Positions 59,203 through 64,000 of a stretch of 64,000 nucleotides of DNA are shown piece after piece. The notes beneath the pieces are model-generated. The model searched no databases. It saw nothing but the letters and a program-made list of their open reading frames with translations, and was not told where the DNA came from. The stretch covers positions 3,844,001 to 3,908,000 of the forward strand of contig NZ_CP093301.1 of NCBI RefSeq assembly GCF_024362785.1. Reading direction: 5' to 3'. Source of the stretch: Evansella sp. LMS18. GTDB taxonomy: Bacteria > Bacillota > Bacilli > Bacillales > Salisediminibacteriaceae. Each line of letters starts with the position of its first letter. The stretch's first letter is position 1. Made by a program: the position numbers and the translations under genes.

Positions 59203-59225
59203 AAGGTTCACTTTATTGGCGTGTC

Positions 59226-59315
59226 GCCGATAAAATCAGGATTTCGCCAATAAACTTGGTGATTTCGCCGATAAAAAATAAATTTCGCCGATAAAACGAT
59301 TTTTTCGCCGATATA
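59226..59315. repeat. Helically phased array, five cores at 20-21-bp spacing
   Basis: Cores GCCGATAAA, GCCAATAAA, GCCGATAAA, GCCGATAAA and GCCGATATA start at 59226, 59246, 59267, 59287 and 59307, each preceded by TTTC or GTC. The spacers differ. It resembles the array at 48661 in design but has a different core. It lies 130-220 bases upstream of the sigma-54 activator gene. Confidence 0.8.
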
Positions 59316-59444: not shown

Positions 59445-60800
59445 ATGAAATTAAAGGAATATAAGGCAGAAATCTTCGATGCAGTAATGGAAAATATGTA
59501 TTACTGTTTTGTGGCAGTGGATAAGGACGGTTTTATTACTTTTCTCAATGAAAATTATTGCCGGTTCATTAACACCACTAAGGAAGAAGCTGTCGGAAAG
59601 CATGTAACTGAAGTTATCGAGAATACAAGAATGCATATAGTCGCAAAAACCGGAAAGGAAGAAATCGCGGAGCTTCAGTACATACGGGGCAACTATATGG
59701 TTGCTAACAGAATACCTGTTTTTTCAGACGGAAAGCTGATTGGCGCGGCTGGAATGGTTGTTTTTCGGGATACAGAAGAATGGCAGAAGATGAACAGCCA
59801 TATTAAAAGCCTTCTCAGTGAATTGGAATTTTACAGAAACCAGGCACAACAGCAGCATGGGGCAAAATACACATTAAATGATATAGTCGGCAGCTCCGTT
59901 GAAATTACAGAATTAAAAAGGAATATAAAGAAGGTAGCGGGAAGCGATGTATCTGTCCTTATAAAAGGAGAAAGCGGAACAGGAAAAGAACTCGTTGCAC
60001 ACAGCCTTCATCATTTGAGTGAACGGAACAGTAAACCTTTTGTGAAAGTTAACTGTGCGGCAATCCCTGAGCACCTGATTGAATCAGAGCTGTTCGGGTA
60101 CGAAGAGGGAGCATTCACCGGTGCCAGGAGAGGAGGAAAAAAGGGGAAATTCCAGCTTGCTGATGGAGGCACAATCTTCCTTGATGAAATCGGGGATATG
60201 CCTTTAGGAGCCCAGGTAAAGATATTACGAGCTATTCAGGAAAGAGAAGTAGAGGCCGTAGGGGCAGTAAAACCGTATGATATAGATGTAAGAATAATAG
60301 CCGCAACAAACCAGCCGCTTGAAAAACTGGTGGAAGAAAATAAGTTCAGGGAAGATTTATTCTACCGTATTAATGTAGTGCTGTTGGAAATCCCTCCACT
60401 AAAAGAACGAAAGGAAGACATACGTCTTCTGGCTAAATATATTTTACATAAAGTGACACTCCGTCTTGGAAAAAGGGTAGTAGATTTTGAAACAGAGGTG
60501 ACAGACAGACTGTTGAAATATAACTGGCCAGGGAATATTAGAGAACTTGAAAATGTTATTGAGTCTGCTGTCCATTTAACAAATACAGAGAAAATAAGGC
60601 TTGAAGATCTTCCCCAGCACCTGCAGAACGGAGAAGATCATTACGAAGGAAGCAGTCTAAAAGAAATAATTGAGCGTACGGAGAAGAAGGCTATAAAAGA
60701 TGCCTTAAGAAAATCAAATGGAAATAAGCTTGAAGCTGCAAAAATACTCGGCCTCGGAAAGACCAGCTTCTACGATAAACTGAAGAAATATGGCTATTAA
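59445..60800 (+). CDS. Sigma-54-dependent transcriptional activator (PAS-AAA-Fis)
   Basis: A 451-aa enhancer-binding protein. Residues 10-115 are a PAS sensor (VMENMYYCFVAVDKDGFITF), residues 140-375 the AAA+ domain with GESGTGKELVA (Walker A), YEEGAFTGARRGG (the GAFTGA loop that contacts sigma-54), GGTIFLDEIGDMPLG (Walker B) and WPGNIRELENV, and the C-terminus a Fis-type helix-turn-helix (NKLEAAKILGLGKTSFYDKL). It probably controls the ketone-body operon just downstream, which has a sigma-54 promoter and three operator repeats. The effector is unknown, perhaps 3-hydroxybutyrate or acetoacetate. The ATG at 59445 follows AGGGGTGTT. Confidence 0.93.
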   Translation: MKLKEYKAEIFDAVMENMYYCFVAVDKDGFITFLNENYCRFINTTKEEAVGKHVTEVIENTRMHIVAKTGKEEIAELQYIRGNYMVANRIPVFSDGKLIGAAGMVVFRDTEEWQKMNSHIKSLLSELEFYRNQAQQQHGAKYTLNDIVGSSVEITELKRNIKKVAGSDVSVLIKGESGTGKELVAHSLHHLSERNSKPFVKVNCAAIPEHLIESELFGYEEGAFTGARRGGKKGKFQLADGGTIFLDEIGDMPLGAQVKILRAIQEREVEAVGAVKPYDIDVRIIAATNQPLEKLVEENKFREDLFYRINVVLLEIPPLKERKEDIRLLAKYILHKVTLRLGKRVVDFETEVTDRLLKYNWPGNIRELENVIESAVHLTNTEKIRLEDLPQHLQNGEDHYEGSSLKEIIERTEKKAIKDALRKSNGNKLEAAKILGLGKTSFYDKLKKYGY

Positions 60801-60806
60801 AATGCA

Positions 60807-60922
60807 TTCCGCACATACGGAAATCATTCCGGAAAAGCGGAATGTTTTTTTGTTTATTGAAATGTAAGGGTTTACATTGGAGCGGGGATAAATAGCTCGA
60901 TAAATTTTCCGTATATTCGGAA
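60807..60922. promoter_or_regulatory. Three upstream activator sites TTCCG-N6-CGGAA
   Basis: TTCCGCACATACGGAA (60807-60822), TTCCGGAAAAGCGGAA (60827-60842) and TTCCGTATATTCGGAA (60907-60922) share the same dyad with different 6-base centres. Centre distances are 20 and 80 bp, so all face the same side of the helix. They lie roughly 100-200 bases upstream of the sigma-54 start, where enhancer sites are expected. Confidence 0.85.
60826..60849 (+). terminator. Terminator of the activator gene, overlapping the second operator
   Basis: CATTCCG and CGGAATG form a 7-bp stem with loop GAAAAG, followed by TTTTTTT. The same dyad is one of the activator sites, so one sequence appears to serve both roles. 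Confidence 0.75.
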
Positions 60923-60988
60923 AAAACGAACTGCCTATTATGCTGCAATTTTCAGCAAGGTTCTGCATTATCAGCATTTTTCACTATT

Positions 60989-61002
60989 GGCATGATACTT
61001 GC
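60989..61002 (+). promoter_or_regulatory. Sigma-54 (-24/-12) promoter of the ketone-body operon
   Basis: TTGGCATGATACTTGCATT has GG at 60989-60990 and GC at 61001-61002 with the required 10 bases between, inside TTGGCA and TTGCAT. The predicted transcription start is about 61013, 20 bases before the first gene. Confidence 0.9.
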
Positions 61003-61032
61003 ATTATTAACCTCGTGAAGGAGGGAGAATGA

Positions 61033-61719
61033 ATGAAAACGATTTACTCATCTTTTGAACAGGCGGTTAAGGAAATCCATGACGGCGCCACGATCATGGT
61101 AGGAGGGTTCGGGTTAGTAGGCATACCTGAAAATCTCATAAAGGCGCTGGTGGAATCAAAAGTAAAAGACTTAACAGTTATATCTAATAACTGCGGAGTG
61201 GATGACTGGGGGCTTGGCCTTCTGTTGAAAGACAGGCAGATTAAGAAAATGGTAGGCTCCTATGTTGGAGAAAACAAAGAGTTTGAAAGACAGGTGCTGT
61301 CCGGAGAACTGGAGGTGGAACTAATTCCCCAGGGTACTCTAGCCGAAAGAATCCGTGCAGGAGGAGCAGGCATTCCCGCGTTTTATACTCCAGCAGGGAC
61401 AGGAACCCCGCTGGCAGAAGGTGTGGAAGTGAGGGAGTTTGATGGAAAAGAGTATTTGCTTCAAAAAGCGCTAAAGGCAGATTTCAGTCTTGTCCGTGCT
61501 GCGAGAGCAGATAATTACGGAAACTTGATATACAGAAAAACTGCGCAAAACTTCAATCCTATGATCGCTGCTGCTGGAAAAGTAACAATAGCAGAGGTGG
61601 AGAACCTGGAAGACGAAGCGCTGCATCCGGAACAAATCCACACACCAGGAATTTACGTTCAGTCACTGATTCAGGGAGAACAGGAAAAACGAGTAGAGCG
61701 TAAAACAGTAAGAAACTGA
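61033..61719 (+). CDS. scoA: 3-oxoacid CoA-transferase subunit A
   Basis: A 228-aa alpha subunit that transfers CoA from succinyl-CoA to acetoacetate (or butyrate-type acids), activating ketone bodies for beta-oxidation. Signatures are [55 protein letters not shown] and [19 protein letters not shown]. ScoA of B. subtilis has the same length. GAAGGAGGGAG precedes the ATG. It is the first gene after the sigma-54 promoter; scoB follows 26 bases later. Confidence 0.95.
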
Positions 61720-61745: not shown

Positions 61746-62420
61746 ATGGCAAATACAACAGATAAAGCAGCAGTGAGAGAAAAAATCGCAAGACGGGCTG
61801 AACAGGAAATTGAAAGCGGTTTCTATGTCAACTTAGGTATTGGGATGCCAACAATGGTTGCGAATTTTATCCAGGATAACAAGGAGGTTGTCCTTCAGTC
61901 TGAGAATGGTCTCCTTGGGATTGGCAAGTATCCATCAGAGGAAGAGCTTGATCCTGATCTGATTAATGCAGGAAAAGAAACAGTGACTGCTGCCCCGGGA
62001 GCATCTTATTTCAGCAGTGCGGAATCATTTGCCATGATCCGGGGAGGCCATATAAACCTGGCTATTCTGGGAGGAATGGAAGTTTCCGGGAAGGGTGACC
62101 TGGCAAACTGGATGATTCCCGGAAAGATGATTAAAGGAATGGGAGGGGCAATGGACATTGTCCATGGTGCACAGAAGATCGTCATCATTATGGATCATGT
62201 CAATAAGCACGGAGAACCGAAAATTTTAAAGGAATGCAGTCTTCCCCTCACTGGAAAAGGTGTAGTTGACCGAATCATTACAGACCGTGCTGTCATCGAT
62301 GTGGAGGAAGAGGGACTCGTACTCGTAGAGACAGCGAAAGGTTTTACAAAAGAAGAAATAATTGAATCTACAGAAGCAGAACTGAAAATCAGCCCTGATT
62401 TAAAAACCGAGGCATTTTAG
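61746..62420 (+). CDS. scoB: 3-oxoacid CoA-transferase subunit B
   Basis: A 224-aa beta subunit carrying the catalytic glutamate in VVLQSENGLLGIGKYP. Other signatures are INLGIGMPTMV-like VNLGIGMPTMVANFI, GGHINLAILGGMEVSGKGDL, and MGGAMDIVHGAQKIVIIMDH. With ScoA it forms the heteromeric succinyl-CoA:3-oxoacid CoA-transferase. AAAGGAGGAGG precedes the ATG. The dehydrogenase gene starts 78 bases downstream. Confidence 0.95.
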   Translation: MANTTDKAAVREKIARRAEQEIESGFYVNLGIGMPTMVANFIQDNKEVVLQSENGLLGIGKYPSEEELDPDLINAGKETVTAAPGASYFSSAESFAMIRGGHINLAILGGMEVSGKGDLANWMIPGKMIKGMGGAMDIVHGAQKIVIIMDHVNKHGEPKILKECSLPLTGKGVVDRIITDRAVIDVEEEGLVLVETAKGFTKEEIIESTEAELKISPDLKTEAF

Positions 62421-62498: not shown

Positions 62499-63275
62499 AT
62501 GGTAAAAGATAAGGTTGTTCTTATCACTGGAGCGGCGAGTGGTATTGGTTATGAAATTGGCCTGGAGTTTGTAAAAAACGGTGCAAAAACAGTTTTTACA
62601 GATGTGAACGAAGAAAAAGTTCACGAAGTAACAGAAAAGCTGGCAGATGAAGGCTATGCATGCTTAGGGATCAAATGCGATGTTACAAACGAAGAGGACA
62701 TCAAGCAGGCAGTTAATCAGACAGTGGAAAAGTACGGCCGGATTGATGTCTTGATTAATAATGCCGGTCTGCAGCATGTGGCAAATATCGAAGATTTCCC
62801 TACCGAGAGGTTTGAGTTTTTAATAAAAGTTATGCTCGTTGCTCCTTTTGTGGCAACAAAACATGTTTTTCCGATAATGAAAAAACAAGGTGGAGGACGA
62901 ATACTTAATATGGCTTCCATAAATGGTCTTATCGGATTTGCAGGCAAATCTGCATATAACAGTGCTAAGCACGGCGTAATCGGGTTTACGAAGGTTGCAG
63001 CGCTGGAAGGGGCAGAGCATGGAGTTACAGTCAATGCTATTTGCCCAGGGTATGTGGATACACCGCTTGTCAGGAACCAGCTGAAAGATCTCGCGGCAAC
63101 GAGAAATGTATCTCTGGATAAAGTTCTTGAGGACGTCATTTATCCCCTCGTACCGCAAAAACGTCTCCTGGATGTCCAGGAAATTGCGGAATATGCTATG
63201 TTTCTTGCCAGTGACAAAGCAAGGGGTGTTACTGGACAGGCGGCTGTGCTTGACGGCGGCTATACAGCGCAATAA
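62499..63275 (+). CDS. 3-hydroxybutyrate dehydrogenase
   Basis: A 258-aa short-chain dehydrogenase. VVLITGAASGIGYEIGLEF is the NAD loop, INNAGLQHVANIEDFPTERF is the NNAG segment with the hydroxybutyrate-dehydrogenase pattern AGLQHVxxIExFP, and MASINGLIGFAGKSAYNSAK has the Ser-Tyr-Lys triad, followed by ICPGYVDTPLV. It interconverts (R)-3-hydroxybutyrate and acetoacetate, the substrate of ScoAB. ATG 62499 follows CAGGAGGGG. Place and motifs agree. Confidence 0.93.
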   Translation: MVKDKVVLITGAASGIGYEIGLEFVKNGAKTVFTDVNEEKVHEVTEKLADEGYACLGIKCDVTNEEDIKQAVNQTVEKYGRIDVLINNAGLQHVANIEDFPTERFEFLIKVMLVAPFVATKHVFPIMKKQGGGRILNMASINGLIGFAGKSAYNSAKHGVIGFTKVAALEGAEHGVTVNAICPGYVDTPLVRNQLKDLAATRNVSLDKVLEDVIYPLVPQKRLLDVQEIAEYAMFLASDKARGVTGQAAVLDGGYTAQ

Positions 63276-63378: not shown

Positions 63379-64000
63379 ATGTTTGGTATATTACTAGGAC
63401 TTATTGTATTGATGGCATTAGCTTATTTAGGCTGGTCAATTATCTGGGTCGCACCGATTGCGGCAGGAGTTGTGGCCCTTACAGGAGGACTCGACCTCCT
63501 TGATGCTTATACAGATACGTATATGGGTGGATTTGTTGGTTTCGCCCGTGACTGGTTTCCAGTGTTCATGCTGGGGGCAATCTTCGGTAAACTGATGGAA
63601 GATACGGGGATGGCAAAATCTGTTGCCGTCGCGCTGACAAAATTAATAGGTACAAAACGGGCAATTCTTGGTGTAATTGTTGCCTGTGCGGTTTTAACAT
63701 ACGGTGGGGTGAGTCTGTTTGTCGTTGTTTTCGCAGTATATCCCCTGGCACTTTCATTGTTCAGGGAAGCGAACATCTCAAGGCGGCTTATGCCTGCGGC
63801 GGTGGCGCTGGGAGCCTTTACGTTTACGATGACTGCCATACCTGGCACACCGCAAATTCAGAACCTTATCCCGATTCCTTACTTTCAAACTTCCGCAACT
63901 GCTGCCCCTGTAATGGGGATTGTTGCAGCACTGGTGATGGGGGTGGGAGGTTACTATTATCTTCGCTGGCGTGAAAAGCAGCTTACTGAAAAAGGAGAAT
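63379..64000 (+). CDS. GntP-family permease, 3' part cut by window edge
   Basis: The first 207 residues are visible, beginning MFGILLGLIVLMALAYLGWS, with repeated membrane helices and the segment FMLGAIFGKLMEDTGMAKSV, which is the GntP/DctM-like family core. GGVSLFVVVFAVYPLALSLF and MTAIPGTPQIQNLIPIPYF agree with GntP transporters of hydroxyacids and gluconate. In B. subtilis a GntP protein (YxjC) accompanies scoAB and the dehydrogenase, so uptake of 3-hydroxybutyrate or acetoacetate is inferred. AAAAAGGAGG precedes the ATG. Confidence 0.9.
   Translation, partial: MFGILLGLIVLMALAYLGWSIIWVAPIAAGVVALTGGLDLLDAYTDTYMGGFVGFARDWFPVFMLGAIFGKLMEDTGMAKSVAVALTKLIGTKRAILGVIVACAVLTYGGVSLFVVVFAVYPLALSLFREANISRRLMPAAVALGAFTFTMTAIPGTPQIQNLIPIPYFQTSATAAPVMGIVAALVMGVGGYYYLRWREKQLTEKGE

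What the first reader, a model, noticed from the sequence alone, without database searches (positions are those of the whole stretch)
60807..61013. Sigma-54 ketone-body operon with three in-phase TTCCG-N6-CGGAA operators
Seen: three 16-bp dyads with identical half-sites and centre distances of 20 and 80 bp, followed by a -24/-12 promoter (GG-N10-GC) and scoA-scoB-hydroxybutyrate dehydrogenase-GntP. The activator with PAS, AAA+ and Fis domains is encoded just upstream. Known: such activators bind 80-200 bp upstream of sigma-54 promoters. Inference: the activator binds these dyads and senses a ketone body through PAS. One of the dyads is also the terminator of the activator gene.
Basis: partly seen in the sequence, partly recalled or inferred. 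Interest (0 to 1): 0.75.

Follow-up and report, generated by a model that had tools for sequence, protein, structure and literature searches.

The report
Activator operators double as terminator
Next to a bacterium's ketone-body genes sit three copies of a short mirror-image DNA word that a neighbouring activator very probably grips to switch the genes on, and in most relatives two of the copies together also appear to act, once copied into RNA, as the stop signal of the activator's own gene.

Summary
Confirmed and extended. The three TTCCG-N6-CGGAA dyads (60807, 60827, 60907) and a near-consensus sigma-54 promoter (60988-61003) are where stated; the nine other exact copies in the 4.9-Mb genome lie inside ORFs. 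The dyad-promoter distance is quantised at about 11 bp (91 matches, 397 genomes), with at least 18 class changes on an activator tree: helical phasing with the in-vivo repeat rather than 10.5. New point: sites 1 and 2, mostly 20-21 bp apart behind the stop codon, together form the activator gene's likely intrinsic terminator. Their spacers covary with each other, not with site 3 and hardly within a dyad, and a T-tract follows site 2 but rarely site 3. In 11 loci where the operators stand away from the activator's 3' end, spacing is 17-19 bp and pairing and T content are on average at background. Pseudomonas HbcR-like loci share the 20-bp geometry with another half-site and no T-tract. Binding, ligand sensing and termination remain inferred. 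A new variant of a known kind.

The parts
59445..60800 (+). Sigma-54 enhancer-binding activator: PAS (residues ~22-110), AAA+ (147-314, with GAFTGA), lid, HTH_8 (409-449)
   Evidence: GAFTGA read in the translation; start codon chosen by fit to relatives
60807..60822 (.). Operator site 1, TTCCGCACATACGGAA; also the 5' arm of the long terminator hairpin
60827..60842 (.). Operator site 2, TTCCGGAAAAGCGGAA; also a hairpin of its own and the 3' arm of the long hairpin
60804..60851 (+). Predicted intrinsic terminator of the activator gene: hairpin (60804-60845 long form, 60825-60844 short form) plus T tract 60845-60851
60863..60876 (.). Box TGTAAGGGTTTACA, one base from a cre (CcpA) consensus; at the same place relative to site 2 in many relatives
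   Evidence: cre consensus recalled
60907..60922 (.). Operator site 3, TTCCGTATATTCGGAA, start 81 bp upstream of the promoter start
60988..61003 (+). Sigma-54 promoter TGGCATGATACTTGCA (-24 GG 60989-60990, -12 GC 61001-61002)
61033..61719 (+). scoA, 3-oxoacid CoA-transferase subunit A
   Evidence: TIGR02429 over cut-off
61746..62420 (+). scoB, 3-oxoacid CoA-transferase subunit B
   Evidence: TIGR02428 over cut-off
62499..63275 (+). 3-hydroxybutyrate dehydrogenase
   Evidence: TIGR01963 and NF009093 over cut-off
63379..64000 (+). GntP-family permease, runs past the window end (427 aa in L011)

Best explanation
An HbcR-like sigma-54 activator is made from its own gene, whose transcript is ended by an intrinsic terminator. 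As dimers it binds three 16-bp dyads (three dimers = one hexamer) in the DNA between its gene and the ketone-body operon, two side by side 20 bp apart and one about seven helical turns further on; with its PAS domain in the inducing state (probably (R)-3-hydroxybutyrate or acetoacetate) it loops to the sigma-54 polymerase at 60988-61003 and fires scoA-scoB-bdh-gntP. Sites 1 and 2 are dual-coded: as DNA they are operators (half-sites fixed), as RNA they fold with each other, or site 2 with its flanks, into the activator gene's terminator, which keeps read-through out of the operon. Shown by computation: conservation, phasing, covariation, T-tract, background values in loci where the operators stand elsewhere. 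Inferred: binding by this protein, hexamer stoichiometry, ligand, actual termination.
For: Dyad pair behind the activator stop in 72 of 87 distinct loci; the same rule gives at most 1 of 87 in 200 shuffles and 0 of 87 for the motif read backwards. Of the 72, 60 have a third site, 70 a strong sigma-54 promoter and 68 a ketone-body gene downstream, in four of them only 2.8-3.5 kb away. Dyad-plus-promoter pattern in 42 and 49 of 397 genomes against 0 and 1 for the reversed pattern. Dyad-promoter distance periodic at 11.25 bp (n=91, R 0.624, largest of 2000 uniform nulls 0.370) and at 11.10 bp collapsed by genus (n=47, R 0.610, null maximum 0.482); at least 18 class changes on a tree over 59 labelled rows. 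Site 1 x site 2 on 52 loci: 84.9% of cells paired against 74.6% shuffled, 96 double-change cells against 41.9, 0 of 500 shuffles each; within dyads 73.9% against 73.3%. Spacer pairing 1x2 4.24 of 6 against 3.29 shuffled; 1x3 and 2x3 within the shuffle range. First base of site 1 and last base of site 2: T/A 54, G/C 10, A/T 6, others 2 of 72; T-rich after site 2 in 63 of 72, after site 3 in 9 of 60. Eleven loci with the pair elsewhere: spacing 17-19, spacer pairing 2.73 of 6, 2.73 T in 8.
Against: No binding, expression or termination data. In the window itself only 2 of 6 spacer positions pair between sites 1 and 2, so the covariation is a family property. 15 of 87 loci fail my rule: L137 and L138 do have the pair, starting before the stop codon, L048 has it about 400 bp on, L192 has one site near the stop, eleven have none there. 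Nine of the 72 fit neither hairpin form. In one search the number of pairs with a double change (9) does not exceed shuffles (8.9); the self-dyad covariation score is slightly high (0.154 against 0.134, 23 of 500). A same-genus genome (G008) has a ~48%-identical activator beside gntP and bdh but no operon dyad with one mismatch or fewer. The 11 comparison loci belong to another activator subclade and six have a co-directional frame ending 43-334 bp upstream, so ancestry may explain their spacing; single members reach 5 of 6 pairs (L232) or 5 T (L233), and the left-out L226 shows 6 of 6 and 5 T at 31-bp spacing. Pseudomonas keeps 20 bp without a T-tract.
Confidence: 0.85

Rival explanations
1. 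Sites 1 and 2 are merely a terminator and site 3 is a chance look-alike; the activator binds elsewhere.
For: A terminator-like hairpin with T7 is at 60825-60851; palindromes easily make hairpins.
Against: A terminator needs no fixed letters, yet the TTCCR...YGGAA pair is found in 72 of 87 loci against at most 1 in shuffles (the near-invariant columns are partly circular because rows were chosen by the motif). Site 3 is rarely followed by Ts (9 of 60) yet has the same half-sites and is locked to the promoter phase. In L221 the triplet precedes the operon although the activator gene lies about 23 kb away.
Confidence: 0.04
2. The hairpin is an empty by-product of palindromic operators; no terminator is selected for.
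For: Any two TTCCR-N6-YGGAA copies pair at most of their 10 half-site positions; the window's spacers hardly pair (2 of 6).
Against: Spacers of sites 1 and 2 pair 4.24 of 6 against 3.29 (sd 0.11) shuffled, while 1x3 and 2x3 do not leave the shuffle range; compensatory changes at the outer base; T-rich stretch after site 2, rarely after site 3; background values on average where the pair stands elsewhere.
Confidence: 0.07
3. A different protein, not the adjacent activator, reads the dyads.
For: No binding experiment; the genome has 18 near-full-length sigma-54 activator domains.
Against: The sites accompany this activator family and its operon across many genera; half-site changes (GTCTC in Pseudomonas, TGTAA-type in Fusibacter, the latter by eye) go with changes in the recognition helix.
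Confidence: 0.06
4. The clusters of spacing near 57, 68 and 80 bp reflect shared ancestry, not helical phase.
For: Many rows come from the same genera; genus collapse leaves n=47; turn classes were drawn by me after seeing the clusters, and 27 of 69 inner branches of the quick tree are weak.
Against: At least 18 changes between classes on the tree, some between closely related activators (L134 81 vs L136 70; L142 81 vs L149 69); periodicity survives collapse; Pseudomonas loci have 77-79.
Confidence: 0.07

Closest known systems
HbcR (PA2005) and the (R)-3-hydroxybutyrate genes of Pseudomonas
   Same: PAS-type sigma-54 activator next to a gntP-type permease gene and (three of four held loci) a 3-hydroxybutyrate dehydrogenase gene; the four Pseudomonas loci have two dyads 20 bp apart at the activator stop codon, a third dyad, and 77-79 bp from it to the promoter. 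HbcR is reported to be activated by (R)-3-HB (PMC10482368, passages).
   Different: 36-37% identity; half-site GTCTC, not TTCCG; no T-tract and little pairing between sites 1 and 2; no scoA/scoB match in the Pseudomonas stretches held. That these loci are HbcR is inferred from gene order; the Lundgren 2015 paper was not held.
AtoC-atoDAEB of Escherichia coli (recalled)
   Same: Sigma-54 control of acetoacetate CoA-transferase genes.
   Different: AtoC is a response regulator (recalled); here PAS and no receiver domain; the AtoC model scores far below its cut-off (340 of 714 bits).
GabR/gabT of Bacillus thuringiensis (PMC4279683, abstract and other passages)
   Same: PAS-AAA+-HTH activator, sigma-54 promoter, repeat operator, metabolite-induced neighbouring operon.
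   Different: Other genes, GABA and succinic semialdehyde as inducers, 21-bp repeats; nothing on a terminator in the passages seen.
Vibrio qrr enhancers driven by LuxO (PMC4740811, abstract and passages)
   Same: Natural sigma-54 enhancers with loop lengths clustered ~11 bp apart in 61 loci.
   Different: Another activator; no operator-terminator overlap in the passages seen.
DNA uptake sequences co-opted as terminators in Neisseria and Pasteurellaceae (PMC1852404, abstract and passages)
   Same: Two inverted copies of a recognised DNA word form intrinsic terminators.
   Different: Uptake words used genome-wide, not operators of a transcription activator.

Membership tests
Sigma-54 bacterial enhancer-binding proteins | AAA+ sigma-54 interaction domain with GAFTGA, plus HTH | tested here: met
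   PF00158 1.5e-70, HTH_8 4.7e-11; GAFTGA in the translation
Sigma-54 bacterial enhancer-binding proteins | Activates a -24/-12 promoter from remote sites | tested here: inconclusive
   Promoter and phased sites conserved; activation not measured
HbcR-type 3-hydroxybutyrate regulators | PAS-AAA+-HTH activator next to gntP-type permease and bdh genes | tested here: met
HbcR-type 3-hydroxybutyrate regulators | Activated by (R)-3-hydroxybutyrate, with sigma-54 | not testable with these tools
   Needs an induction assay; reported for HbcR in PMC10482368 (passages)
HbcR-type 3-hydroxybutyrate regulators | Orthology to PA2005 | not tested
   36-37% identity over residues 14-450 to Pseudomonas loci; no reciprocal search or rooted tree
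AtoC | Receiver domain and AtoC equivalog score | tested here: not met
   No receiver domain in the Pfam scan; 340.2 bits against cut-off 714
PrdR (best NCBIfam hit) | Equivalog score | tested here: not met
   439.5 bits against cut-off 795
Intrinsic terminator | Stable hairpin directly followed by a T-tract behind an ORF | tested here: met
   in relatives
Intrinsic terminator | Transcription ends there | not testable with these tools
   No RNA data

The most novel reading that the evidence does not exclude
The overlap is regulatory, not only economical: activator bound to sites 1 and 2 alters elongation or termination of its own transcript, and RNA polymerase crossing the pair clears the enhancer, so activator dose, its mRNA 3' end and enhancer occupancy are coupled in one feedback loop.
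Probability: 0.12. Interest if true: 0.75.

Novelty: new variant of a known kind. Interest (0 to 1): 0.52.

Why it matters
It offers a natural case in which one DNA stretch seems to be under two separable selections, as operator (fixed half-sites, helical phase) and as RNA terminator (covarying spacers, T-tract), with a comparison group where the second duty seems to be missing. It also predicts, for many relatives of this genome, sigma-54 control of ketone-body genes with a ready operator motif, and adds an evolutionary estimate of about 11 bp for the loop repeat, in line with the in-vivo fits of 10.95-11.60 bp for lac repressor loops in PMC1762422 (passages).

Tried and rejected
Site 2 to promoter distance gave a best period of 12.6 bp with many scattered values and was not used. 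Self-pairing of each dyad as the conserved RNA element was tested: cells paired and double changes did not exceed shuffles, the covariation score slightly (23 of 500). That exact dyads mark a wider regulon in this genome was rejected: the nine other copies are in ORFs, and the dyad-promoter patterns found only this place in G000. The TGTAAGGGTTTACA box was first taken for a cre; it differs at the central CG, and only 14 of 72 loci hold an exact cre in the stretch scanned, downstream hits included, so CcpA control is only a lead. Literature: in the listings (titles, starts of abstracts) of the eight searches I saw no paper on this operon's operators or on an operator pair forming the activator's terminator; the library is open-access only and I did not read the listed papers whole, so this is no proof of absence. 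PMC12316311 (passages) already reports predicted sigma-54 control of the CoA-transferase COGs 1788 and 2057 among lipid genes enriched in Clostridia and Bacilli. PMC6615313 held none of six search words. PMC4428206 (passages) names eight activators of B. thuringiensis; acetoacetate occurs there once, about another organism's regulon.

Rows left out before counts: 10 duplicate fetches (97 to 87 loci); 15 of 87 loci without a pair by my rule (two of them, L137 and L138, do have one). From the comparison group: L226 (spacings in reversed order; it shows 6 of 6 spacer pairs and 5 T), L221 and L239 (sites follow a co-directional gene) and L228 (only two dyads, 53 bp apart). All 91 pattern matches were kept, although two places (L235, L236) show no ketone-body genes, some genomes give two sites, and in some the dyad is not site 3. 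Loci with spacing other than 20 (20 of 72) were not in alignment A1 (52 of 72). The Mann-Whitney values (spacing, T, spacer pairing) take no account of ancestry.

Full report
Observation. The three exact TTCCG-N6-CGGAA dyads are at 60807, 60827 and 60907, 20 and 80 bp apart, between the stop codon of the activator gene (60798-60800) and scoA (61033). A sigma-54 promoter, TGGCATGATACTTGCA, lies at 60988-61003. The genome has 12 exact dyad places; the nine outside this locus lie in ORFs with no sigma-54-like sequence within 300 bp. The genes are a PAS / sigma-54 AAA+ / HTH_8 activator, both 3-oxoacid CoA-transferase subunits, a 3-hydroxybutyrate dehydrogenase and a GntP-family permease. The genome carries one sigma-54 gene and 18 near-full-length sigma-54 activator domains.

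Conservation. The activator was found at E<=1e-120 in 214 of 397 genomes of the order (only the best candidates of each genome were scored) and in named Virgibacillus and Neobacillus records. I examined 97 fetched loci, 87 after removing duplicates. In 72 of 87 a pair of TTCCR-N6-YGGAA-like dyads (at most three mismatches over both, at most 80 nt behind the stop) stands behind the activator, spaced 20 (52), 21 (14), 22 (3) or 19 (3). The same rule gives a mean of 0.04 and at most 1 of 87 in 200 shuffles, and 0 for the motif read backwards. Of the 15 misses, L137 and L138 have the pair starting before the stop codon, L048 has it about 400 bp on, L192 one site, and eleven none there, nine of these with activators of 41-58% identity, the others L157 (62%) and L197 (56%) also without. 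Of the 72, 60 have a third site, 70 a strong sigma-54 promoter, and 68 a ketone-body gene downstream: scoA first in 33, bdh first in 15, gntP first in 20; in four (L174, L175, L189, L200) it is 2.8-3.5 kb away, and four have none in the stretch held. The pattern dyad plus promoter, without reference to the activator, hits 42 and 49 of 397 genomes in two distance ranges, its reversed control 0 and 1.

Phase. Distances from dyad (in most cases site 3) to promoter cluster near 57, 68, 80, 90 and 100 bp. The best period is 11.25 bp for all 91 matches (R 0.624; largest of 2000 uniform nulls 0.370; bootstrap 10.95-11.85) and 11.10 bp for 47 genus-collapsed values (R 0.610; null maximum 0.482; bootstrap 10.7-11.7). 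On a quick tree of 72 activators, 27 of 69 inner branches weak, at least 18 changes between turn classes are needed over 59 labelled rows; close relatives differ by 11 or 12 bp (L134/L136, L142/L149). So 'in-phase' is right if the repeat is about 11 bp, as in-vivo lac loops give (10.95-11.60, PMC1762422, passages); at 10.5 bp it would fail. Clustering by ~11 bp has been described for LuxO-qrr enhancers (PMC4740811, passages), so the phenomenon is known; this is an independent case.

Operator as terminator. Site 2 of the window with its flanks forms a hairpin followed by T7; sites 1 and 2 together fold at -20.3 kcal/mol (z -4.9). Across relatives the spacers of site 1 and site 2 pair at 4.24 of 6 positions, against 3.29 (sd 0.11; maximum of 2000 shuffles 3.69); site 1 with site 3 (3.45 vs 3.24, maximum 3.63) and site 2 with site 3 (3.22 vs 3.17, maximum 3.62) stay within the shuffle range. 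On the 52 loci with spacing 20 the site 1 x site 2 structure has 84.9% of cells paired against 74.6% in shuffles and 96 double-change cells against 41.9, with 0 of 500 shuffles reaching either; the number of pairs with any double change (9) does not exceed shuffles. Pairing within each dyad: 73.9% against 73.3%, 41 against 37.6 double changes, covariation score slightly high (23 of 500). The first base of site 1 and the last base of site 2 change together: T/A in 54, G/C in 10, A/T in 6 of 72, two exceptions. At least 5 T in 8 follow site 2 in 63 of 72, site 3 in 9 of 60. I sorted loci into a long site 1 x site 2 hairpin (30), a site-2 hairpin extended by flanks such as CCA...TGG (33, the window among them) and neither (9); this sorting used the pairing itself and is descriptive only. 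In the window only 2 of 6 spacer positions pair between sites 1 and 2.

Comparison group. In 11 loci of an activator subclade whose gene lies downstream of, divergent from, or outside the stretch with the operon, the three dyads stand before the operon with spacing 17-19 and then 30-35 bp; spacer pairing is 2.73 of 6 and 2.73 T in 8 follow site 2, against 4.24 and 5.19 in the 72. Single members deviate (L232 5 of 6 pairs, L233 5 T), six have a co-directional frame ending 43-334 bp upstream, L226 (left out) shows 6 pairs and 5 T at 31-bp spacing, and ancestry confounds the contrast. In G314 the operon with its triplet (L221) is about 23 kb from the activator gene (positions) and directly follows another co-directional ORF: the operators stay with the operon.

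Deeper relatives. Four Pseudomonas loci with the order activator-gntP (bdh beyond it in three of the four) have dyads of another half-site (GTCTC) spaced exactly 20 bp, site 1 spanning the stop codon, a third dyad, and 77-79 bp to the promoter, with 1-2 T in 8 after site 2 and 1-3 of 6 spacer pairs. The recognition helix differs accordingly (window GKTSFYDK, most relatives GK[ST]S[LF]Y[DE]K-like, Pseudomonas GRSTLYKK). I infer that the operator geometry is old and the terminator duty was added in the window's branch; this order was not tested on a rooted tree.

Mechanism. Most likely three activator dimers bind the three dyads and assemble the hexamer that loops to the promoter (three dimers per promoter is described as typical in PMC4894688, passages), switched by a ketone body at the PAS domain (HbcR responds to (R)-3-HB, PMC10482368, passages). 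The terminator keeps activator-gene transcription out of the operon. Binding, ligand and termination are inferred. Whether activator binding to its own terminator has a regulatory effect is open and is my bolder reading.

Noticed in passing
window 59224-59315: Short array of TTCGCCGATAAA units about 20 bp apart upstream of the activator gene; the pattern TTCGCCGATAAA-N5-30-TTCGCC gives 32 matches at 14 dispersed places of this genome (27 on one strand, 5 on the other), 0 for the reversed control. Neobacillus L048 shows similar CGCGAAAT/GGCGAAAT repeats by eye. Function unknown.
   Followed up: partly
window 60863-60876: TGTAAGGGTTTACA box; pattern TGWAARSSYTTWCA exact in 23 of 72 loci, 21 of them 33-37 bp after the start of site 2; in L164, L166 and L168 the same place holds a CG-centred, cre-like sequence, suggesting catabolite control.
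   Followed up: partly
L223-L225, L227, L229-L234, L240: Second architecture: dyads before the operon spaced 17-19 and then 30-35 bp, activator gene behind, divergent or not in the stretch held; L226 has the two spacings in reversed order.
   Followed up: partly
L209 (G008, same genus): gntP and bdh beside a 48%-identical activator but no dyad with one mismatch or fewer near them: another operator or loss.
   Followed up: no
L171, L194, L198, L201, L207, L208: Six of 72 loci in which operator site 1 begins at the last base of the activator's stop codon: stop codon, operator and terminator overlap.
   Followed up: partly
one search matches of G072 and G106: AGTGAACTTTCACT palindrome between site 3 and promoter, resembling a Rex redox operator (recalled); not tested.
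   Followed up: no
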